64,000 nt of DNA. Source: Drechmeria coniospora. Its lineage: Eukaryota; Ascomycota; Sordariomycetes; Hypocreales; Ophiocordycipitaceae. Each line of letters begins with the position of its first letter. The first letter of the stretch is position 1. Both the position numbers and the translations under genes were made by a program. The notes under the pieces are model-generated. The model had not been told where the DNA came from. It worked only from the letters and a program-made list of their open reading frames with translations, and searched no databases. The DNA lies in NCBI RefSeq assembly GCF_001625195.1, contig NC_054390.1:3496027-3560026 (forward strand). Direction: 5' to 3'. Positions 48,848 to 61,158 of the stretch are shown piece by piece.

Positions 48848-50649
48848 CTATACATGCTCTGGTACTCGTATTGCATGAGGGGGCTGCGTAGCTGGAGCAG
48901 TCCGCAAGGGAATCGCGGGGCTCAGCGAAAAGCAGGCTCCCATGAGCGGCGAGTGACCGGCCCAACGTCCGACAAAGGTCCCGGTGGAGAGGGCTGCTCG
49001 TGCGACGCTGGATTTCGTCAGGTACAGGGTTGGGTGACCTTCGATATCGACGATGCAGTTGTGCCAAGGGGTCGGCACATGGAGCTGGTCGTGGAAGAGA
49101 GCGAGGTCGGCGTCGGGCAGGAGTTCTTTCGCCGCCCGCACGCCCTTGCCGAGCATCTGAATGCCAAATTTTGGTCCCGCATTGTTGTGACTACAATCTC
49201 GTTAGTCGAGACGTGAACCTCGGGCGACGGCATGCGGAGAGAAGCAAGGTCGTACGCATGGATCGAGAGTCGCACGTGGTGCGGGAATATGATCTCCACC
49301 AGATTGGAATATGCTTGATTGCGCTACGGCCAACCGTCAGCATGCGGCCAAGGAATGGGAATGAAAAGCAGGGCAGGAAACGGCAACGAACTTGAATCAT
49401 CTCAAAGGCCACCTTGGCCGCCAGTTTCCTGCGCTTCGACTGGCTGAGACCGTTGGTGTAAGGGTTCAGCTCGAGATCCTCGAGCATGAACTTGGAAAAG
49501 CCTCGATAGAGGGCCAGGATACCCTTGTCCTGATTGTCGATGCTCTCCCTCAACGCGCTGTCGTGAAGTTGAAAGCCAAGACGCAGGATGCGGCGACAGG
49601 TCTCGGCCTCCGTCGTTTGCTTGGTTTGAATGTCGTGCTGGATGCATGGAATGCGGTCCAGCATGCAGTCGCGTCGGTCGAGGACGCACCGGTCGGGGGC
49701 GAATATGTCCACGAGGGACTTGAAGCCTATCCGATCAACACCGCCTCGACTCGAAGCGATGTCTTCGTTCATGGCAATGAGCTGGGCTCCGTACCCGTCG
49801 ACGACGGCGTCATCGACGCCGACTGAAAGGCAACAACAGGTCAGCTTCGGCCGGGCCAAAAACGGACGGTCGGTGCCTGGATCGGGAGGAAACCATACTG
49901 CAGTCGCTGAATACGTGGCCATCGCTGATGATCCACAGCTTGGCTCCGGGTGGATATATGCTCTCGATGGCTTGTATGAAGTCGTGCAGGTTGCTCAAGG
50001 CAATGAGCTCACCGCGGTCGGGCGATGTGCCCTGCACCTTGTTCGGGTTGGAGGATTTGCAGGGGAAGGCCGGAAGACAAAACTCGACCCGCTGCCCCCT
50101 GCAGGTAAAGTGGCGGACACTGTCTCGAAAGACCTCTCTGCCTCCCCGCAACCACATGTCATCCTTGGCGACGTATCGGAGAGCGCCGTCAAAGAGATCG
50201 ACGATGAGGTCCGTCACGCGGTCCGGCGTCGACTCTTTCACGTCGCCGTCGGCATCCAGGTGCATGCCGGAGAGAATCAGGGAAGCAAAGAAGAGATCGA
50301 GGTCCTGGTCCGCCAAGGGACATGAACCTGGCTCCAGCTTGAGGGCGATGCCGATGGTGTCGGAGGTGCGTCTCCGTCTTTGGAGCATGACGAGACGTTC
50401 CGACCTCTCATCGTCACCGACCTCGACCGTCACGACCGTTCGGGAGAGCGGTTGGCCCGTCTCGGAGGAGACATTCTGGGACGAGGAGGACGACAGCTGG
50501 CTGCGAATCCGGCTCCAAGCCGAGCTGAGCGTGTCCCGGGAGGGGCCGAAGCAGTAGACAAGCTGGCCGCCGCCATCGTAGATGTAGGTTCCCGCGAACC
50601 GCTCGTAGACGGACAGAGTGTTCTCCATCGTCGGATGGGAGAGCTGCAT
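48848..50649 (-). CDS. Isocyanide synthase, Dit1/PvcA family (stand-alone)
   Basis: Four exons: 50649-49899, 49822-49392, 49323-49256 and 49190-48848, 530 aa; introns 76, 68 and 65 bp, all GT-AG, with consistent phases. Yeast Dit1 is about the same size. Family signatures are seen in order: CLPAFPCKSSNPNKVQGTSP with DRGELIALSNL, KLWIISDGHVFSDC joined to IGVDDAVVDGYGAQ, a helical DRIGFKSLVDIF region, the RNQAYSNLVE and FPHHVRLSIHA block, then HNNAGPKFGIQML, and PTPWHNCIVDIEG near the end. Family knowledge: PvcA/IsnA-type enzymes turn an amino-acid amine into an isonitrile using ribulose-5-phosphate; yeast Dit1 acts on tyrosine to make an N-formyl/isocyanide intermediate for the dityrosine spore wall. 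No NRPS, TauD or transferase fusion is present. It is divergent from the P450 gene, as DIT1 is from DIT2. Substrate and product here are inferred. Confidence 0.92.
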
Positions 50650-50734
50650 CTAGTGCACGACAGAGGAAGAGACGGGAGTCTCAGACCGGCGGCCGCAAGT
50701 TGGCTCGTGGTAAAAGATATACGAGCATGCACGC

Positions 50735-50769
<35 letters not shown>
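50735..50769. repeat. AGC/CTG trinucleotide run, about 11 units
   Basis: Uninterrupted GCA repeats on the plus strand, upstream of the isocyanide synthase start and inside its possible 5' UTR intron. Confidence 0.95.
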
Positions 50770-51284
50770 CGTGAACTCACATCATCTCTCGCCCCTCCCA
50801 GCCCTCTGCGCAAGAGGCGCAAGGACTGATTTCGTGTCGTATCATGCGCGTGCGTACATACGAACAGTATGAGTAAGAATTCATCCTGCGTCCCGCAACG
50901 GCCGCGGCCGGATGACGGCCGCAAACTGAATGAAGAAAGAAGAAAGGAGGAGGCATGTCAGCGTACTTGCCCTGCCGCGCCGCGCCGATAGATCAGGCAA
51001 GCGCCATCGGCGTCTTGTGGAACGGGGGATCCCAGATAGGTTTGGCGCGGCCCTCTATTTAAACCCCTTCCGGCTTGGCGCGAACGTGTCCGAGTCCTCC
51101 TGCCAGTCCGGGTGGAGTTTCGGTGAGAGCCGGAGTTGGGAGCGGGCACCGGGAACCGTCCAGAAATATATAATTAGGAAGTCACGAACGGCGACGAGCA
51201 AGTTTTGCTCACGCGGCAGCTCGAAACCTGAGAGAGAAAAACTCTGCGCAACTCGGCGGGGAAGGCACATCCCCCAATGTCATC

Positions 51285-51429
51285 CATGGCTAGCACCAGA
51301 GCCATAGATAGCACCATAGCTGTAGATGGCACCAAAGTCATAACATCATAGTCATGGCACCGTGGCCATGGCATCGTGGCCATAGCATCTTGGCCGTGGC
51401 ACCTTCGCCATGGCACCTTCGCCATAGTC
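51285..51429. repeat. Degenerate 14/18-bp tandem repeat
   Basis: Units of 18 bp (CATAGATAGCACCATAGC type) change into 14-bp units (CATGGCACCGTGGC, CATGGCATCGTGGC, CATAGCATCTTGGC, CGTGGCACCTTCGC). All share a CATgGCAcC core with a GGC or CGC end. It lies 0.3-0.45 kb upstream of the P450 start. Confidence 0.85.
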
Positions 51430-51742
51430 CTCGTTGCCAAAGTTCGCTTCGGAGCCGTACAGATTCACCTGTCGCCGTCAGCCTATCGTACAAACACCGC
51501 GTCCTGAACGTACATGTTGTGTGCTCTACCCGCACACATTTTCTTCACGAGGTGACGCCCGACTTGTGCCGTCCGGACTGGTAGGTGTCATTTGCCCGCA
51601 CACCCTTCCCTGCATTTCACTCATCATCTCCGTTCCGTCAGCTGGCTTGGTGGGCTGATAATGGAGCTACCAAGGCCTTGTGAGGGCAATATATGACGCC
51701 GTCTCGTCTCCGAAGCCCTTGCCTCACTCAGCCTTGAGCACC

Positions 51743-53471
51743 ATGGCCCTCTTGCTTCGCCTCGCCGGAGGCTTCGGCGTCGTCCTGCTGCTGCTGCTCC
51801 TGCTTGCCGGGCTGATATACTATCTCTGCCTGCTGCCGCCCACGGAGCCGCGCGGGATACCTTCCATCCCGTTCTGGGTTGCGCTTCTTCCGCTCGTCAA
51901 GGACGTCGACCAGCAGGTCGTCTTTGCGCGATATATAGAAAAGCCTCTGCGGACCCACGGAGCCGTCAAGATATTTTTCGCCTCCAAGTGGAACCTTCTC
52001 CTTCACCGGCCCGCCTTGCTCGCCGACCTGTTCAAGCATGAGGACCGGTACCAGAAGAGCGGGAACCAAAAAAAGATTCCCGGAAGCGTCCTCGCCTCCT
52101 TTCTGGGCGACAACATCATATCGAGCCACGGCCAGATCTGGAAGTCGTACCGGCAGATCATCCAGCCCGGCTTGCAGAGGCAGTTTGATCTCGACGTGCT
52201 TCTCACCAACGCCGACCGGCTGTGCGACATGCTCGTCGATTCCCAAGCCGACAAATCGCACAATGGTGACGGCATATCGGTCCAGGCGAGCATCCAACGA
52301 CACACCATTGCCAACTTTGCCCAGGTCGTTTACGAGGTCGACCTTGGCGTGAGTGACAACCGACCTGCCCTGATCACTTCCCGATGGCGCGGCTGCTGAC
52401 ACACGCAGAAGACGCTACGATCGAAGGCTGCCTACCTTGACCACCTGCAGCGGAGGATCAAGCGCGAGATATTCAAGCCAATATTCATGAATTTCCCCTT
52501 CCTCGACCGATTGGGCTTTCCGAGCAGGAGAAGAGCTCGCCTGCTGGCGGCCCACTTTACGGACCAGCTCGTCGAGGCCTTGGAACGCGCGCATCCGACG
52601 GACGTAAAGGAGCCGCGAAACCTGCCCTGCTCGCTGCTGGCGGCAAGGAAGACGGGGGAGTTGACCGAGCAGCAGTTTCGTGACAACGTTACCGTTCTCT
52701 TCGTCGCTGGCCAGGAAAACCCTCAGCTTGCTATCCTGTCGACAATGTATCTGCTGGCCAAGCACCCCGTGAGTCCCGTCCTCGATTAGCCCAAAATTTT
52801 CTCTCCTCGCTCATCTCGGCACCCAACAGGAAATCCAAGAGCGGCTTCATGATGAAGTCGTCGCCGCAGGGAGCCAAGTGCCCACCCACGATGTGCTGCA
52901 GAGCATGCCCCTTCTGACCGCCATTCTCCTCGAGAGCCTGCGACTTCTTCCCCCGATCGGACAGCTGCTCAACCGTCGGGCGGCCGAGCCGCTGATTCTT
53001 GGCAACGGCATCTTCGTCCCGCAAGGCACGTACCTGGGGTACAACTGCTACTCGACGAACCGGGATCCGCTGGCTTGGGGCATCGACGCGGACCAGTTCC
53101 GCCCCCGGCGATGGGGCAGCAACGCTGCCGACATACAGCGAGAGTTTCGCCGGCGGAGGGCGCGCGCCGAGTTCATCTCCTTCCACGGCGGACGGCGAGC
53201 CTGTCTGGGGGAGCGATTTGCCATGCTACAGATGAAGGCGACACTCTTTGTGCTGGCCAAGCGGTTGAGGTGGAAATTGGACTCCACGTGGGAAGATAAG
53301 ATGACACCGGTAAGTTTCGGGAAAGAAACCGTTTGCCCGCATTCGTGAGACGATTGCTCACACATGCCGCTCGAGTAGGCCGGTCCGCTCTGTCCGCGCC
53401 AGTTGCGGTTGGTCATAGAGCCGAGAGCTCAAGGAACGTCGGAGGTCAAATGCGACATGCCTATCCGGTAA
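51743..53471 (+). CDS. Cytochrome P450, CYP56/Dit2-like
   Basis: Four exons: 51743-52348, 52409-52768, 52830-53309 and 53379-53471 (introns 60, 61 and 69 bp, GT-AG, phase 0), 512 aa. An N-terminal anchor (about 5-32, LLLRLAGGFGVVLLLLLLLA) and the PPTEPRGIPSIPFW hinge place it on the ER. Seen motifs: I-helix VAGQENP (about 301-307), ExxR as ESLR (357-360), FRPRRW (412-417) and the haem loop FHGGRRACLG with Cys about 447. The I-helix has Asn where most P450s have the oxygen-activating Thr, which suggests an unusual mechanism or a CYP56-type variant. In yeast, Dit2 couples two N-formyltyrosines into the bisformyl dityrosine. The divergent placement next to a Dit1-type synthase supports a similar oxidative role. 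The exact CYP family cannot be fixed without alignment. Confidence 0.88.
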
Positions 53472-54960
53472 TTGGTGCACCTCGCACCAAGAAACACCAG
53501 GTGATGCCTCGCATGAGGTATCTGCCCAACGCCTACGGGCTATTTCCCACGTTGAGGCCCGAAGTCGGGGACGAGCTGAAAGTCCCCGTTGCACAAGAAC
53601 AGAATCACACGAACTGGTACGTGTTACTCCGCTCCGGACACCGAAGCCATGACTCACATGGTGCTTCTTCAATCAGTTGGGGGATCAAGGAAGAATATGG
53701 ATGGTTCCGTACTATCTTTGTCGCGTGAGCCCGCGGCCGTGTCGGTTGCCGTCTCATTTGATAACTCTGTCGAGAGTTTGCAGAGAGACAAGCATGCTCG
53801 AGCCAAGACGCAGCATTTTCGTACAACGATACGCCTGAGACACGCCGTCGCCAGAGCCATATGGACTGGTCAACATGAATGCACTATCTCGAAATTTTGC
53901 CTAGACTCATAGAAATCACGATGCCAAGTTCACCGATATGTGAGAAGCAAGCAAGCTCTGCGACCACGGCGGCAAGTTAATTGGCCCGAGATGCAATATA
54001 TCAGCACCCATCATGCCACATTACACTCCCTGTGGACTGCGGGATTGGCCTGCTGCAGGATCAGTCATACCAACATATTGCCTGCTTTGAATGCACCATT
54101 GACAGCGAGTTTGCTTCTATCGTACCATTTTGATACGAGAACCTCCTATTGTCCCTGTGGCGAATCATCGTATGACATGTATTGGCGAACTATGTACATT
54201 GCACACGTCTTCCTCCTTTCAAGCTTGCCCTGATCATTGGTGTGTTGAAGGTGACCTGTATTCAGCCATGACACCAATGCTGTGGCACATACCTCCGGGC
54301 ACTCGTTAAATAAACTCCAAGATGCTCGAAAATCATGACAACACTCCTTGAAGCGAAGCAGAAATGCAAGCAGACTCTCGCAGATAGACGCTCATATCAT
54401 CACTACTCAGTAATAGATGCTGCTACCACTTTGCCGAATCTCACCGGCCAATTAAGTATTGTTGACTGAATGTAAGCGAGAAAAAAAGTGCGAGATTGTT
54501 GAGGCTTGTACGGAGTATGATTCGAAAAATAATCATCTGCTGACGATAAGCACAAGTCGTTTGTGTATGGTGGACATGCATCATCACTGACACCAGGAAA
54601 GGCGGGAGCATGACAGTATGGCAGCATGATGGGACTCGAAAATGCGACGCCAACGTCTTCAATAACGAGGTCAAACCATTTGAAAGCTTTACACCGCTAT
54701 CCCTCCCCTCAACATGAAGGCAGGGTTTGATTTGCAATCCCATCGGCTCCAGTCGAGCGGTCGATGCCATCATCCTACGGCACTGTACGTCTGATGAGGG
54801 CTCCAATATCCATCGTTCAAAGCGCGAAACCCACAGCGAAACTGATTCTGAGGCTCTGGGGGAAAAATGGAAGTTGTATTCGAGTAGAATACTTTAATAT
54901 ATGGAAGAGCAATTTTTTTGTTAGTTTTATTTAGGAAATTAAGCATGCCCGCTGGACCTT
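53472..54960. other. Intergenic, no supported gene
   Basis: 1.49 kb between the P450 and the Atg22-like gene, which converge. Composition becomes more AT rich towards 54250-54960. Short frames only. Confidence 0.6.
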
Positions 54961-56927
54961 TCATGCATTCAATCCGTCCGTCCGACCCTGCTCCACGGTA
55001 GACGCTGATGCTGCGAGGGGTGTCTCGGCATCCTTGATGCCTTTGTCTACATCTGTCCAAAGGTACAAGCAGAGGGCAACAACCATGAGCAGCAGATTGG
55101 GAATCATGGGAAAGCGCAGGTTGTGCGTGCTGTTCTGGATCACTCCTTGCACAAGCGGGTTGATCCAACCAGTCGCCAGATCCAGGGTAATCTCGAGGCC
55201 AAAGTAGATTGCCTCGGAACCTTTGGGGATCAGCGAAGAGTAGAGGACGCGGTTCAGGGAACGCAGGGCGCTGCTCGTGCTCATGAAAAGAACGTCGACG
55301 ACCCAGAACTCGGTTTGGCTCTTGTATCCGATGGGCACACTCTTGCTGATTCCGATGCAGCCCCAGAGGACGCAGAGAATGTTCACAGAGAGAAAGATGT
55401 AGGCCCAGCTCTTGATGTGAAGCTTCGCGTGGGGAAAGGAAAACAGCCAGGTGAGCGAGCCGAGGCAAGCGGACAAGACCATGACGAAAGTGTAGACCGT
55501 GTACACGCTGCTGCCCCTCTGGATGCCCGTCGTCTCGAGGAAGAGGGCGCTCAGGAGAGACAGGAAGTTGCCGTAGGCGGTATTCCACAGAACCCAGCCG
55601 ACGCACAGCTTGAAGGCATTGGGATATCGGCGCACGGAGCCCAGGAGCGAAAGCCCTGCGTCGTGGGAGCCATGGTCAGCAGCGGGGATGGGTCATCTGG
55701 CGTCGGGACTTACACGTTCGCAGGGGCAGGAGGAAGATGCTTTTGCCGACCGGTCTCTTCCTACCGGGAATATCTGGCAGCAAGATGTGTCCAGCGATGG
55801 CGAAGAGAACTAAGCACGTCACGTTAGCGCGCCGCCTTGAGCGAGGTGGGGGTGATACTCGGTCGGTCGTACTCGTCAGGCATCCTGCGATGGAAATGGC
55901 CAAAAGAAAGCTTCATCGGTCCACATTAGCCCATGCTTGCATGCATGCCTCCCACGGTCAAGGCGACGTCTCACTTGAAGTAACCCTCCTTCACGGCGCT
56001 GCCACGGGTGTAGGTGATGATGACACCGATCAACAGAGCCACCAAGGCGCCGACGTTGCCCGAGACGAGCCCGAGGACACTGACGCGGCTTCCTTTGATC
56101 CAAGTGCTGTTGATCTTTGGCCTGCCACCTTCCTGGGCCGCCTCGAGCCTACGGGGCGGGTTGAACCAACCAGAGGAACGCATGAATATGGGAATGTACG
56201 ATGCCTCGATGACGGTGTAGACGCCGCTGACGGTCGAGATGACGACGTAGAGCGTCGAGAGCGCGTTGAGATGGCTGTACGAGTTGCCCGTGAGGCCTGC
56301 AAAGGGCAGGGCGAGGGCGCCGAAGAGGTAGATGGACGCCATCATCATCGTCTTCCGGTAGTTGGAGTAGTCGGCCGCACCGGATGCCATGATGGAGACG
56401 ACACCTTCGGACGCTCGGCTGATGGCTCGCAGATACAAGCTGCCAGAGGGCACCCGTCAGCTCATTCTCGGGCGCTTCCGCGGCTCGTGGCGAGCGGGCA
56501 CGAGACGCACAGGTAGCTAAGGTAGTCGACATCGCGACCGCCGAGCTTGACGACACACTTTATGGCCCCCCGTCGGGCGCAGGGCTTGTCCGTGCCGGGT
56601 ATGTGACCGACGGCATTCGCGGCCGACTGGATGCTGGCCGTCACGTAGCTGCTGATCATGCTATTCGTCGGACCCGTCTGGACCGAAGCAAGTCAGCGCA
56701 CGAGCCGTGCCGGCGATGGGGACGGCGGCAGGGCGGATGAGACGAACGGAGAAGCAGAGGATCAGCCAGGCCCAGAGGGCTTTTCTCGTCCTCAGCGGCG
56801 TGACGATCTCATCGCCACTGGTCGAGTCGGACTCCTCATCAGCCGTCTGCGCAACGACGACGTGGGCAGGTGAGGGGGGTTTCGCGTCTTCCTGAATCAA
56901 CGTCGTCCGCGAGTTGGCGTCACTCAT
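54961..56927 (-). CDS. Atg22-like major facilitator membrane protein
   Basis: Six exons: 56927-56748, 56677-56511, 56439-55975, 55910-55873, 55809-55714 and 55655-54961 (introns 70, 71, 64, 63 and 58 bp, GT-AG), 546 aa. Phases fit at every joint. After a polar N-terminus come the Atg22 landmarks: ALWAWLILCFSTGP, SSYVTASIQSAANAVGH, VDYLSYLLYLRAISRA-type segment, and GALALPFAGLTGNSY; later NAFKLCVGWVLWNTAYGNFL and the last helices ending about residue 515. About 12 transmembrane spans are expected. Yeast Atg22 exports amino acids from the vacuole. Here the location between an isocyanide synthase/P450 pair and a second transporter suggests supply of precursor amino acid from the vacuole or sequestration of product; that is inference. 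It could also be an unrelated resident gene. Confidence 0.88.
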
Positions 56928-59183
56928 TGTTGGCGTAGATAGGTACAAATATTGAAACGAATATGTATAATTCGTCTGCCGACCCTAGATGGGGACGAGC
57001 CGGACCGGGATAAAGTATTATTATATTGCTAGCCAGTTGGCAGGTGAGTGAGTAGATGGCGTGTGTCACGGCGATGCGTTACGTACTTACTGTGCAGTCC
57101 TGATAGTAGTGGTAGGCGCTGAATAAAGGTTGCAGATGCGAAGGCCCTCTGCCACGAACACGGTGCGGCATTACGCGAGGAAGTTTGCCCACGTACATGC
57201 ATGCAGGTGTACAAGTACTTGCTGCATTGGCACATCCGCACGGAGCGTCACTGTACATGTACTTGCACAAGTGAGTGTATTGTACGTACCGATGGCACAG
57301 AAGCCATGTGGCAGGTACTTACTGTACGCGCACGCCTACGTACGCCACTTTGTTCGCAACGAGAGACGGAAAGCGCGGGTGCCAGATCAAAATCATATTG
57401 ATATCGTGTCGTTCTTGACCGAATCCTTGACCGACTTGAAATTCGGGTAGGCGCTACGGAGTACCATTACTGCTAATGGTGCAGGAACATACAGTATACT
57501 TACTCAGTACTGTACTGTACTTAGATGAAGGTACTTGCGCACGCCACAAGGCCAACATGTACAGGTACTCGCCCCATGTGCCCTTGCTCGTGCGCTATAC
57601 CTACACTGCCTCCGCACACATACCTACTTGCAAGTACTTGCGTCAACGTCTACGAATTCTGACATGTACACGTACAAGTACGGAATGACATCCTGAAAAT
57701 GCACCCTGAGCCAATGGGAAACTAGCTCATCGACGTTTCGGGCAAGCAGTGCAACACTGCACCCTTGTCACCTAGAGAGCCCCAGAACTCTGCTCCTTGC
57801 TGCATGCTCCTACAGTACAGTAAGTACGTACAAGTATTACGGAGTACTTGGCACACCTGAGTACAGTAGTACTTAAGTATGTGTACGACGTACAGTACTA
57901 AAACAAGTACTGTCAGTGCGGAGGACTCGGCACATGCACAGACAGTACTTACGACGGAGGTTCAAGCACACCTCCAGTTGTTGTACTCCGTGCAAGCACT
58001 GTACTGTCTCAATCTACTCCATACACCACTCTCACCGATAGCCTGATAGGTAACCTCGTGGGCAGGAGCTTGCTCATGTTGCCCGTGCAGGTACTCCGTA
58101 CATGTACGCCTACTTGTACCCTTCAGCGCCGTACGTACTCCCCTTGATGTGATTTTTGTTTTTACCAAAATACCAAGTCGTACAGCAGATCCTTTTCCTC
58201 GTACGAGCAACATCTCCTACCCCGTGCGCCTACCTGCTACTTTCCCCCAGCATACACGATCATGTCCACGCACTCTTTTCATCATATCTCGCAACCCGCC
58301 GAGCCGTCAGCACATACCGGAAAAAATTGCCAAAAACTCGAGTGGAACCGAAACGCCCTCAAATTTGCGCAACCACCATCCTGAGCAGGTGCAAGCCGGA
58401 AGGTAGCATTTGGATGGATACAGACTGCTCCTCCCCACTCTACACCTACCTGGACTTGCACCTACACTTCCACCTACACTTCCAACTACTTGTACACTTA
58501 CACTTGCTTACAGTACATGTACTCGCCCTTACTTGTAACACCTGCGCCTACTCACTTGTACACCCACACCTACTTACTTGTACCCCGTACACTTACACCT
58601 ACTGTACACCTACTACTTGCACCTCCTTGCACCTACTTGTACAACTACATACACCTAGGCGTAGGTGTGCAGTACAGAACACCACTGGCATTGCAGAGTA
58701 AGTACTTGTACAGAGCACAGAGCACTGAGTGGTACTCACTCGTAAATACTTACTGTCTACTGTAGCTGCGGAGCAATGCTTACTGTAGCTGTCGTGTTCG
58801 TACTGACAGGTACTGCAAGTACTTAGGTCCAAGTTCGAGTACTTCCTATTAATAATCCCGTATTATCGGTAATAATAGCATGCGTCTGGAGCGGAAGCAC
58901 TATCCGATCAAACCCGAGTCGAGTCGTTCGTTCTTTTGCGGGGTCAACGATCTGTTCACGACACACGATTCCGCAGGCACCGGCATAGGCGCAACCGCGC
59001 ACCTCGGCCGCTTCTGACGGCAGCAGACGTGCACCCGCAGACCTAGCGCTTGAATGCAAGGCCGCAAGAGTGGGCTGACGGCAATTCATTGATAATATTT
59101 CGCCAGGTCATGGTTACCCATCACCGTCACCGGGACCAATTTCTCCGTCCACACGCATCACGTCGATCTCCCAGGCACTGGCC
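56928..59183. repeat. Intergenic, 2.3 kb, GTAC- and CACCTAC-rich
   Basis: No supported gene. 57080-58120 is a GTAC-rich island. 58438-58670 is a degenerate array built from CACCTAC and CTTGTACA words at about 6-14 bp spacing; any translation of it is low-complexity (Thr, Leu, His, Tyr). The promoters of the Atg22-like gene and the MFS gene lie at its ends. Confidence 0.65.
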
Positions 59184-61158
59184 ATGGCTCCTCAGCCGAC
59201 TGCGGACTCGCACGAGTCCTCCTCAGACCAGTCCATGAGCGACACCTCTCTTGGTTCGGCACAGAAACAACCGATTCAAGACACCAACATCTTGCCTGCC
59301 ACGCCTGCCACGCCTGACAAGGCTACCCTATCACTGCCGGACAACGACTTGGAAAAGGCTCGACAGGATGGCCATGCCGCGCCAGCGCCAGCGTACTGCG
59401 CCCTCCCCGCGGCTCGTCGACGCTTCATCCTTGGCATTGTTACCGTCGCGGGACTCCTCGGGCCCCTGGCCGGCGCCATTTACCTCCCGGCATTGCCTGT
59501 GCTGGAGAGGGAGTTCAACGTCGGCTCCACGGCCCTCAATGCGACGGTCTCGGTCTTCATGGTGACCTTTGCGTTTGCCGTGAGTCCTCCACCCCCCGAC
59601 GCCATCGGCCTTGTCCCGCCGGGCCTGAGCGAGGCCGTGAGCGCCGGTGCTGGGGCCGACATGGATGCTGAACCCGGACATGAATGGATGCTGATCATCG
59701 AGCGTCGCCGCAGCCGCTCTTCTGGGCCAGTCTCGCCGATGTCCAAGGCCGACGACCGTTGTACATCATCTCGCTGGCCGTCTACATCTTCGCCAACATC
59801 CTGATCGCGTCGCTGCCCAAGAATTTCGGCGCCCTGGTATTCTTGCGTCTCGTTCAAGCATTTGGATCGGCCGCCGTCGTTTCCATGGGCGCCGGCACCG
59901 TCGCGGATGTGTGTTGTTCCCACCACCCACCACCGCCGCTTGCCAGCCCGGGCCGCTAACGGTCCCAGATCACGGAACCGAAGCGACGCGCCACCGCCAT
60001 GTCCCTGTTTCTGCTTGGTCCCCAGTGCGGTCCCATCATCGGTCCCGTCCTCGGAGGCGCCTTGGCCGGGCAGACGAGCTGGAGGTGGATTTTCGGCTTT
60101 CTAGGCAAGTGCGCCGACTATCTGTAGCGCTTGACGGAAGTCTGACCCGAGCCGCTCAGCCATCTCTGGCCTCGTCCTGTGGCTCGTTGTCATCTTCATG
60201 CTGCCCGAAACGCTTCGGTGCCGCGTCGGCAACGGCGAAATCCACAGCAACGGCTCTTGGATACTTCTGCCGCCCAGACTCGCCTCGGATCTCGCGCCGG
60301 AGCCTCGGAGAGGACCGAAACCCCCCAAGCCCACTCTGCTGGCCTACTGGAGGCTCTTCTCCTACGCCCCGATCGGCATCGTCTCCGTCAACACGGCGAT
60401 ACTCTACTCGACCTATTTTGCCATCGCCGTCCATCTCCCCCACGCCCTGGAAGATGTCTACCGCTGGTCCACGACGGCCGTAGGTGCCGGGTATCTCGCC
60501 GTCGGCATCGCCCTCGTCATCGGATCCGTCATCGGTGGTCGCGTCAACGATTGGCGCCGCGCGCGACTCGTCAAGGCAGCGCCGGACGGGCATGTCGAGC
60601 CCGAGACGAGATTGGCCGACCAGGCATGGGGTGTCATGCTGTGCGCCGCTGGCACCATCATGTTTGGCTGGTTCGTCGACCGCTCCGTCCACGCTGCGGC
60701 AGTCCTGATTGCTACCTTCCTGAGTATGGCCGTGAACCCCAGCGCTTCCAGGCGCGCATCTTGAGGCTTCCGAACGCTAATTTTCTGCCAGCTGGCTTCG
60801 GCATGAGCTGGGTTTTCATTGCGACGACCGCATTCTTGTCCGAGTGTGTCCCCCAGCAAGCCGCCGGCGCGTTTGCGCTCGGAAACATGCTCCGGAATCC
60901 GGGCGCCGCCATCGCGGCAGTCATCCTTCCCCCCCTCGTATCCAAGATGGGCGTCGCATGGTTCTTCACTGGCTTGGGCATCTTGGATGCCGTGGTTGTC
61001 GGCGGTGCCGTCATACGTAAGTCCACTCCGTGCACGACAGGACCTGTCACCTGCGCTTCATCGGTTAACATACGAGACCCCTAGTCTTGCGCATACGCGG
61101 CCCTTATTGGAGGGAGCAGAGAAAGGCCAAGGCGCAGAATGCGAAGAGCGGAGGGTAA
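59184..61158 (+). CDS. MFS transporter, DHA1 drug:H+ antiporter type (Dtr1-like role possible)
   Basis: Six exons: 59184-59579, 59714-59908, 59969-60104, 60160-60723, 60792-61016 and 61085-61158, 529 aa. Introns are 134, 60, 55, 68 and 68 bp. The 55-bp third intron has a GC donor (CTAG|GCAAGT), and no GT alternative keeps the frame. Seen motifs: LADVQGRRP (MFS motif A, loop 2-3), RLVQAFGSAAV (motif B) and LGPQCGPIIGPVLGG (motif C, typical of antiporters). About 12 spans follow a polar N-terminus of about 75 residues, with a long central loop after LPETLR. DHA1 proteins export drugs and metabolites; yeast Dtr1, of this group, moves bisformyl dityrosine across the prospore membrane. Export of the neighbouring synthase/P450 product is the simplest inference, but substrate is unproven. 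Confidence 0.9.

What the first reader, a model, noticed from the sequence alone, without database searches (positions are those of the whole stretch)
48848..61158. Candidate dit-type isocyanide cluster: Dit1-like synthase, Dit2-like P450, Atg22-like and DHA1 transporters
Seen: a stand-alone isocyanide synthase divergent from a P450, followed by two different MFS-fold transporters, in about 12 kb otherwise free of genes. Established: in yeast, DIT1 and DIT2 are divergent and make dityrosine precursors that Dtr1, a DHA1 MFS protein, exports. Inference: this filamentous fungus keeps the same three-part logic (synthase, P450, DHA1 exporter) and adds an Atg22-type transporter, so it probably makes an isocyanide or formyl-amino-acid metabolite for wall, spore or metal chemistry.
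Basis: partly seen in the sequence, partly recalled or inferred. Interest (0 to 1): 0.88.

Follow-up and report, generated by a model that had tools for sequence, protein, structure and literature searches.

The report
Ancient four-gene dityrosine-type fungal cluster
A nematode-killing fungus carries the same small gene set that baker's yeast uses to make a tough cross-linked tyrosine layer on its spores, and one of its four genes, a little-noticed Atg22-like transporter, also sits near parts of this set in many distantly related fungi, so it may be an overlooked part of the pathway.

Summary
In detail: four complete genes lie at exactly 48848-61158: a DIT1/PvcA-family synthase divergent from a P450, then an Atg22-family transporter divergent from a DHA1-type MFS transporter. 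The organism is almost certainly Drechmeria coniospora. This is a dit-type cluster of the kind already described in Sordariomycetes (PMC10153163), not a new pathway. The MFS gene groups with proteins named Dityrosine transporter 1; DIT1 and the MFS gene share a contig in 26 of 34 named species found in both hit lists. The idea that this fungus 'adds' an Atg22-type transporter is contradicted: the gene belongs to a distinct subfamily (about 21% identical to this genome's best canonical Atg22 candidate) and shares a contig with the DTR1-like gene in 22 of 31 named species plus five unnamed contigs, budding yeasts included. No library paper holds both ATG22 and DIT1, or ATG22 and dityrosine; one 2009 Pichia stipitis paper notes a co-located, co-regulated AUT4. 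Likely role: N-formyl-tyrosine dimer precursor for a spore or conidial wall, the Atg22-like protein moving tyrosine or an intermediate (inference). The Dit2 (CYP56) identity of the P450 was not tested.

The parts
48848..50649 (-). DIT1-like synthase, single DIT1_PvcA domain, 530 aa; exons 49899-50649, 49392-49822, 49256-49323, 48848-49190
   Evidence: gene model; PF05141 303.6 bits; 98% identical to a deposited Drechmeria coniospora protein, then 60% Hirsutella rhossiliensis; PDB relatives by sequence are isonitrile synthases and PvcA
50650..51742 (.). 1.1 kb divergent intergenic region between the DIT1-like and P450 genes; holds a tandem array of 14-base units (5.2 copies) at 51353-51425
   Evidence: gene models
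51743..53471 (+). P450 in the DIT2 position, 512 aa; exons 51743-52348, 52409-52768, 52830-53309, 53379-53471; the I-helix region reads AGQEN
   Evidence: gene model; PF00067; the four best-scoring other P450 matches of the genome are 31-35% identical over 160-209 residues
54961..56927 (-). Atg22-like transporter (dit-linked subfamily), 546 aa; exons 56748-56927, 56511-56677, 55975-56439, 55873-55910, 55714-55809, 54961-55655
   Evidence: gene model; PF11700 456.1 bits; 100% identical to a deposited D. coniospora protein; MFS-fold model mean pLDDT 76
56928..59183 (.). 2.3 kb divergent intergenic region between the Atg22-like and DTR1-like genes
   Evidence: gene models
59184..61158 (+). DTR1-like DHA1-type MFS exporter, 529 aa; exons 59184-59579, 59714-59908, 59969-60104, 60160-60723 (preceded by a GC-AG intron), 60792-61016, 61085-61158
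   Evidence: gene model; PF07690; hits named Dityrosine transporter 1 / DTR1; tree; best PDB match by sequence Quinidine resistance protein 2, 135.8 bits against 59.4 for the next

Best explanation
The locus is a complete, probably functional dit-type cluster of Drechmeria coniospora with four members: DIT1, a P450 in the DIT2 position, DTR1 and an Atg22-like transporter. Proposed working: the DIT1-like enzyme attaches a one-carbon unit to L-tyrosine (N-formyl or isocyanide product); the P450 couples two such units into a dityrosine-type dimer; the DTR1-like protein exports it across the membrane around the developing spore or conidium, where it is built into the wall. The Atg22-like protein is a dedicated second transporter whose most likely job is to deliver tyrosine (or an intermediate) from the vacuole or another compartment to the pathway. 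Shown here: gene content, intactness, arrangement, relatives, and linkage of three of the genes across fungi. Known from others: the chemistry in S. cerevisiae, and a wall phenotype of DIT1/DIT2/DTR1 deletion in Coccidioides. Inferred: the product and site in this fungus, the Dit2 identity of the P450, and the role of the Atg22-like protein.
For: Four intact models and Pfam matches. Homologues of the DIT1-like gene include proteins named spore wall maturation protein DIT1; of the MFS, Dityrosine transporter 1, Candida included. MFS tree and identities against two paralogues of the same genome. Where both locus tags are visible, DIT1-Atg22L lie 1-3 tags apart in 10 of 10, MFS-Atg22L are neighbours in 5 of 5, and DIT1-MFS lie 2-3 apart in 10 of 11 (7 in the other). 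The Atg22L tree runs from budding yeasts to Pezizomycotina. Literature: Pichia stipitis DIT2-DIT1-DTR1 cluster, co-regulated with a co-located AUT4 (that AUT4 is an old name of ATG22 is recalled); Coccidioides mutants lacking DIT1/DIT2/DTR1 have thinner arthroconidial walls; DIT1/DIT2 cluster in Sordariomycetes.
Against: No P450 homologue search was run (all three protein searches went to the other genes), so the Dit2/CYP56 identity is untested by sequence. Only 33 of the 120 listed Atg22L rows share a contig with a row of the other two lists; none of the Xylaria-type rows does. In Claviceps maximensis, C. cyperi and Conoideocrella the tags of DIT1 and Atg22L are consecutive, leaving no slot for the P450 between them. 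In Mycothermus, Remersonia and Corynascus DIT1 and DTR1 are two tags apart, leaving room for one gene only. Same-species rows on different contigs exist, e.g. Claviceps africana, C. citrina, Zalerion and Rhypophila for DIT1-MFS, Wickerhamomyces pijperi for MFS-Atg22L. Megabase contigs show linkage, not adjacency. In Candida dubliniensis, deleting DIT1 or DIT2 did not change chlamydospore fluorescence, which the authors say is not due to dityrosine (PMC8092133, passages). No match to a yeast mid-sporulation (MSE) consensus, recalled, lies in either intergenic region. No expression or metabolite data for these genes of this fungus were seen.
Confidence: 0.66

Rival explanations
1. A secreted isocyanide (xanthocillin-like or metal-binding) metabolite cluster rather than a wall precursor: the synthase makes a tyrosine isonitrile, the P450 dimerises it, and the transporters export it.
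For: Solved relatives of the synthase are isonitrile synthases and PvcA. Lim et al. propose XanB/XanG as close parallels of Dit1/Dit2 (passages). Nickles et al. count Dit1 as an isocyanide synthase.
Against: The synthase here shows no dioxygenase domain of the XanB/IcsB kind, while this genome has another PF05141 gene followed by a TauD-type ORF elsewhere (C1:8.534-8.536 Mb). The exporter is Dtr1-like. PvcA did not replace Dit1 in yeast.
Confidence: 0.2
2. The Atg22-like gene is a hitchhiker: an ordinary vacuolar or housekeeping transporter held in place by chance or slow rearrangement, with no role in the pathway.
For: Nickles et al. raise hitchhiking for dit flanking genes. Tag spacing in Mycothermus, Remersonia and Corynascus leaves no slot for it between DIT1 and DTR1 if the P450 is there. 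87 of 120 listed Atg22L rows show no contig match with the other lists, though the lists are capped.
Against: Contig sharing with the DTR1-like gene in 22 of 31 named species plus five unnamed contigs, from budding yeasts to Sordariomycetes, is hard to explain by hitchhiking alone; reported co-regulation of AUT4 in P. stipitis; it is not the canonical Atg22 candidate of this genome.
Confidence: 0.25
3. The Atg22-like protein is a second exporter or loads the dimer into a vesicle or prospore compartment, acting in series or redundantly with the DTR1-like protein, rather than supplying tyrosine.
For: It is divergently paired with the exporter gene; in yeast the triple mutant dtr1 qdr1 qdr3 has less dityrosine fluorescence than the single mutants. 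S. pombe Atg22 is reported to act in uptake into vacuoles, not efflux, so direction is not fixed in the superfamily.
Against: Papers seen describe Atg22 proteins as vacuolar amino-acid transporters, which fits tyrosine better; but identity to the canonical candidate is only about 21%, so neither role is established.
Confidence: 0.3

Closest known systems
dit superfamily, Clan 2 (Eurotiomycetes and Sordariomycetes), Nickles et al. 2023, PMC10153163 (passages and sections 21 and 23 read)
   Same: DIT1-type synthase and P450 in the dit1/dit2 orientation in Sordariomycetes. The paper also reports an MFS gene in Clan 3 and Onygenales dit clusters.
   Different: Its main text has 0 occurrences of DTR1 and of ATG22; the flanking genes of Clan 2 are in a figure I could not see.
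Pichia stipitis DIT2-DIT1-DTR1 cluster with co-located AUT4, PMC2784038 (passages read)
   Same: Same synthase, P450 and exporter, plus a co-located and co-regulated gene named AUT4 (recalled as an old name of ATG22).
   Different: Yeast; listed order puts DTR1 on the DIT1 side; that AUT4 is the same subfamily was not tested (a protein of another Scheffersomyces species, P0332, is).
Coccidioides spore-associated six-gene DIT1/DIT2/DTR1 cluster, PMC12077801 (section 15 read)
   Same: DIT1, DIT2 and DTR1 side by side; mutants lacking the three have thinner arthroconidial walls.
   Different: 0 occurrences of ATG22 in its main text; three further genes, one labelled cutinase. A Coccidioides Atg22L is 62% identical to the window's (P0265), but its location was not seen.
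S. cerevisiae DIT1/DIT2 and DTR1
   Same: Biochemical model for formyl tyrosine, bisformyl dityrosine and its export (passages).
   Different: That DTR1 (YBR180w) is unlinked to DIT1/DIT2 there, and that no dit-linked Atg22L is known there, is recalled.

Membership tests
dit superfamily cluster | single-domain DIT1-type synthase | tested here: met
   Only PF05141 found, 303.6 bits; hits named spore wall maturation protein DIT1. No tree against other isocyanide synthases was built.
dit superfamily cluster | P450 gene divergent from DIT1 | tested here: met
   Gene models, PF00067.
CYP56 (Dit2) | P450 belongs to the monophyletic Dit2 clade / at least 40% identity to CYP56 | not tested
   No CYP56 sequence was obtained; seen only that the best-scoring other P450 matches of this genome are 31-35% identical.
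Dtr1 (DHA1 MFS) | groups with yeast Dtr1 rather than with other DHA1 transporters | tested here: met
   43-46% identity to six yeast hits (three Dtr1-named: Candida tropicalis, C. subhashii, C. viswanathii) against 33.6% and 26.8% to two paralogues of the same genome; the split of those two from the other 121 tips has support 0.81. S. cerevisiae Dtr1 and Qdr sequences were not in the tree, so the test is against two outgroups only.
canonical Atg22 | groups with, or is close in sequence to, the genome's canonical Atg22 | tested here: not met
   20.7% and 17.5% identity to the two other PF11700 proteins of this genome; no listed hit exceeds 22.3% to either. In the tree all 120 hits and the window protein lie beyond a stem of length 3.0, whose printed support is only 0.46. 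Which paralogue is canonical is judged from its higher PF11700 score (614.8 bits) and recall.
xan-type (XanB) isocyanide cluster | isocyanide synthase fused to a TauD-type dioxygenase domain | tested here: not met
   Absent from the window protein. A second PF05141 gene at C1:8.534 Mb is followed by a TauD ORF; the fusion there was not modelled.
dityrosine pathway | makes N-formyl tyrosine / bisformyl dityrosine placed in a wall | not testable with these tools
   Needs metabolite and wall analysis.

The most novel reading that the evidence does not exclude
The dit pathway was a four-gene unit before budding yeasts and filamentous ascomycetes separated, and the Atg22-like subfamily is its unrecognised dedicated transport step (supplying tyrosine, or shuttling the intermediate between the cytosolic Dit1 and the ER-bound Dit2). 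If it has been lost or has left the cluster in S. cerevisiae (not tested here), that would explain why the model system never revealed it.
Probability: 0.42. Interest if true: 0.68.

Novelty: new variant of a known kind. Interest (0 to 1): 0.5.

Why it matters
How the dityrosine precursor is handled between compartments and assembled is described as unresolved even in yeast (PMC7345447, passages: Dit1 is cytosolic, Dit2 is in the ER, assembly mechanism unknown). A linked, conserved transporter names a concrete gene to delete in a tractable yeast, and the cluster gives a reason to look for dityrosine-type walls in the conidia of nematode- and insect-killing fungi, where the spore surface matters for attachment and persistence (the last point is general knowledge).

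Tried and rejected
Considered and rejected: (1) that the Atg22-like gene is the genome's canonical Atg22 (about 21% identity to the best candidate); (2) that it is an addition peculiar to this fungus (contig sharing in yeasts and many Pezizomycotina); (3) that the second DIT1-family gene of the genome is a duplicate of this cluster: it is followed by a TauD-type ORF and lies near a FAD-binding ORF, and matches the window synthase at 25-44%. Led nowhere: the MSE-like motif search (7 matches in the window, 7.15 expected, none in the two intergenic regions); the fold search with the Atg22-like model (general MFS fold, best E 4.3e-08 to GLUT3); profile search of the same family against PDB sequences (0 matches); two D. 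coniospora genome papers (passages: 0 occurrences of dityrosine, pyoverdine or isocyanide in the main texts; supplements not open to me); a last literature search (3 papers, all already seen). Weak points: each hit list shows only its best 120 proteins, drawn from about 8000 best-word candidates, so absence from a list says little; two MFS rows had no contig length; contig equality is judged by equal length, and for megabase contigs it shows linkage only; the denominators of shared species are hand counts, and some misses are different strains or assemblies of one species (Cercospora beticola, Beauveria, Ophidiomyces, Ophiocordyceps sinensis, Claviceps purpurea).
Full report
What is there. The four genes exist as described and are intact. 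Splice-junction models give complete proteins of 530, 512, 546 and 529 residues, with outer stop codons at 48848 and 61158. Pfam assigns DIT1_PvcA, p450, ATG22 and MFS_1. The order is DIT1(-) P450(+) Atg22L(-) DTR1L(+): two divergent pairs. The window lies at C2:3496027-3560026 of a 32.8 Mb assembly. The DIT1-like model is 98% identical to a Drechmeria coniospora protein on a 10,204,147-base contig, the length of C2 in this assembly, and the Atg22-like model is 100% identical to a D. coniospora protein. So the organism is almost certainly D. coniospora, an endoparasite of nematodes.

The synthase. It carries only the DIT1_PvcA domain. Its nearest relatives are proteins of two Hirsutella species and Ophiocordyceps sinensis at 58-60%, with many Sordariomycete proteins beyond, some named spore wall maturation protein DIT1. 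By sequence its solved relatives (3 at E up to 0.001) are tyrosine/tryptophan isonitrile synthases and PvcA. The genome has one other PF05141 gene; a TauD-type dioxygenase ORF follows it and a FAD-binding ORF lies near. That looks like the two-domain XanB/IcsB architecture described by Lim et al. (passages), but I did not model the gene. It is not a copy of this cluster.

The P450. It sits in the DIT2 position. Of the genome's other P450 matches (30 candidates scored), the four best are 31-35% identical over 160-209 residues; one 75-residue piece reaches 38%, and two short stop-broken pieces reach 50-59% (see noticed items). I had no CYP56 sequences and spent the three homologue searches on the other genes, so its Dit2 identity rests on position and on the finding of Nickles et al. 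that the P450s beside DIT1 form one Dit2 clade. This remains the main untested link.

The MFS exporter. Hits are named Dityrosine transporter 1, dityrosine transporter or DTR1 in Colletotrichum, Cercospora, Madurella, several lichens and Candida; others carry names such as Citrate exporter 1 or bicyclomycin resistance protein. In a FastTree tree of 123 sequences the window protein and the 120 hits are split from two paralogues of the same genome with support 0.81. Identity is 43-46% to the six yeast hits compared, three of them Dtr1-named Candida proteins, and 33.6% and 26.8% to the two paralogues. Its best solved relative by sequence is a Quinidine resistance protein 2 (135.8 bits; next 59.4). 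In S. [quoted passage not shown]

The Atg22-like transporter. The genome has two further PF11700 proteins, 20.7% and 17.5% identical to it. 133 database proteins passed E 0.001 among 7998 scored candidates, 120 listed. In the tree all 120 and the window protein lie beyond a stem of length 3.0 (printed support 0.46, two outgroups only). An 81-tip group, mostly Pezizomycotina, has support 1.0; a 31-tip group with most of the named yeasts has 0.85; Geotrichum joins the former side (89 tips, 0.99). Thirty-one members, 41-76% identical to the first, show 66 invariant columns. The fold model (pLDDT 76, pTM 0.76) is an ordinary MFS fold. It is a separate, well-conserved subfamily, although databases name it Autophagy-related protein 22.

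Linkage. I matched contig lengths between the three hit lists of 120 rows each: 26 contigs carry DIT1 and the DTR1-like gene, 27 carry the DTR1-like and Atg22-like genes, 13 carry DIT1 and the Atg22-like gene, and 7 of these carry all three. Under 100 kb are 7, 12 and 8 of them respectively. Seen from the Atg22L list, 33 of 120 rows match. Counting by hand the named species or isolates present in both lists, matches are 26 of 34, 22 of 31 (plus five unnamed contigs of 5.3-39 kb) and 13 of 19 (D. coniospora left out of the last). The misses include different strains or assemblies as well as different contigs (for example Claviceps africana, C. citrina, Zalerion, Rhypophila, Wickerhamomyces pijperi). 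Where both tags are visible, spacing is 1-3 (DIT1-Atg22L, 10 of 10), 1 (DTR1L-Atg22L, 5 of 5), and 2-3 in 10 of 11 with 7 in the other (DIT1-DTR1L). Three of the four named yeasts present in both transporter lists (Candida subhashii, Suhomyces tanzawaensis, Wickerhamomyces ciferrii) carry both on one contig; W. pijperi does not.

Literature. The DIT1/P450 cluster in Sordariomycetes, and an MFS gene in some other dit clusters, are published (PMC10153163). DIT2-DIT1-DTR1 in Pichia stipitis, co-regulated with a co-located AUT4, was noted in 2009 (PMC2784038, passages). Coccidioides mutants lacking DIT1/DIT2/DTR1 have thinner arthroconidial walls (PMC12077801, section 15). In the library searched, 0 papers hold ATG22 with DIT1, 0 hold ATG22 with dityrosine, and 1 holds AUT4 with DIT1. 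That is a statement about these searches only.

Mechanism. Reported in yeast: Dit1 makes formyl tyrosine (an isocyanide product or intermediate is disputed), Dit2 couples it, Dtr1 exports the dimer. Inferred here: the same path in a spore or conidial wall. The Atg22-like role is open; tyrosine supply from a compartment is my first choice because Atg22 proteins are described as vacuolar amino-acid transporters (efflux in S. cerevisiae; uptake in S. pombe), but direction differs between those reports and sequence distance weakens the transfer.

Verdict.

Noticed in passing
G000 C3:777166-777994 (L010), outside the window: Decayed relic of a second copy of the P450: short pieces 53-63% identical, stop codons in the matched stretches, 69.7% identical DNA over 257 bases, in an AT-rich stretch with raised TpA/ApT and mostly lowered CpA indices, as left by repeat-induced point mutation (reading of the indices recalled).
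   Followed up: partly
G000 C1:8534313-8536158 (L007): A second DIT1-family gene followed by a TauD-type dioxygenase ORF, with a FAD-binding ORF some 2-3 kb away: probably a separate xan/isn-type isocyanide locus; gene not modelled.
   Followed up: partly
Claviceps maximensis, C. cyperi, Conoideocrella (tags): DIT1 and Atg22L have consecutive locus tags in these fungi, leaving no slot for the P450 between them; the P450 may have moved, been lost or been missed by annotation there.
   Followed up: no
window 51291-51425: Array of imperfect 14-base repeats (consensus CATGGCACCTTGGC) in the shared DIT1/P450 intergenic region.
   Followed up: no
protein P0082 (Collariella sp.): A DIT1-family gene model that also carries PF04145 (recalled as the Ctr copper transporter family); either two neighbouring genes merged by annotation or a true fusion.
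   Followed up: no
proteins P0300 and P0310: Atg22L sequences labelled Favolaschia claudopus and Lasiodiplodia mahajangana fall inside the Xylaria-type clade, suggesting mislabelling, contamination or transfer.
   Followed up: no
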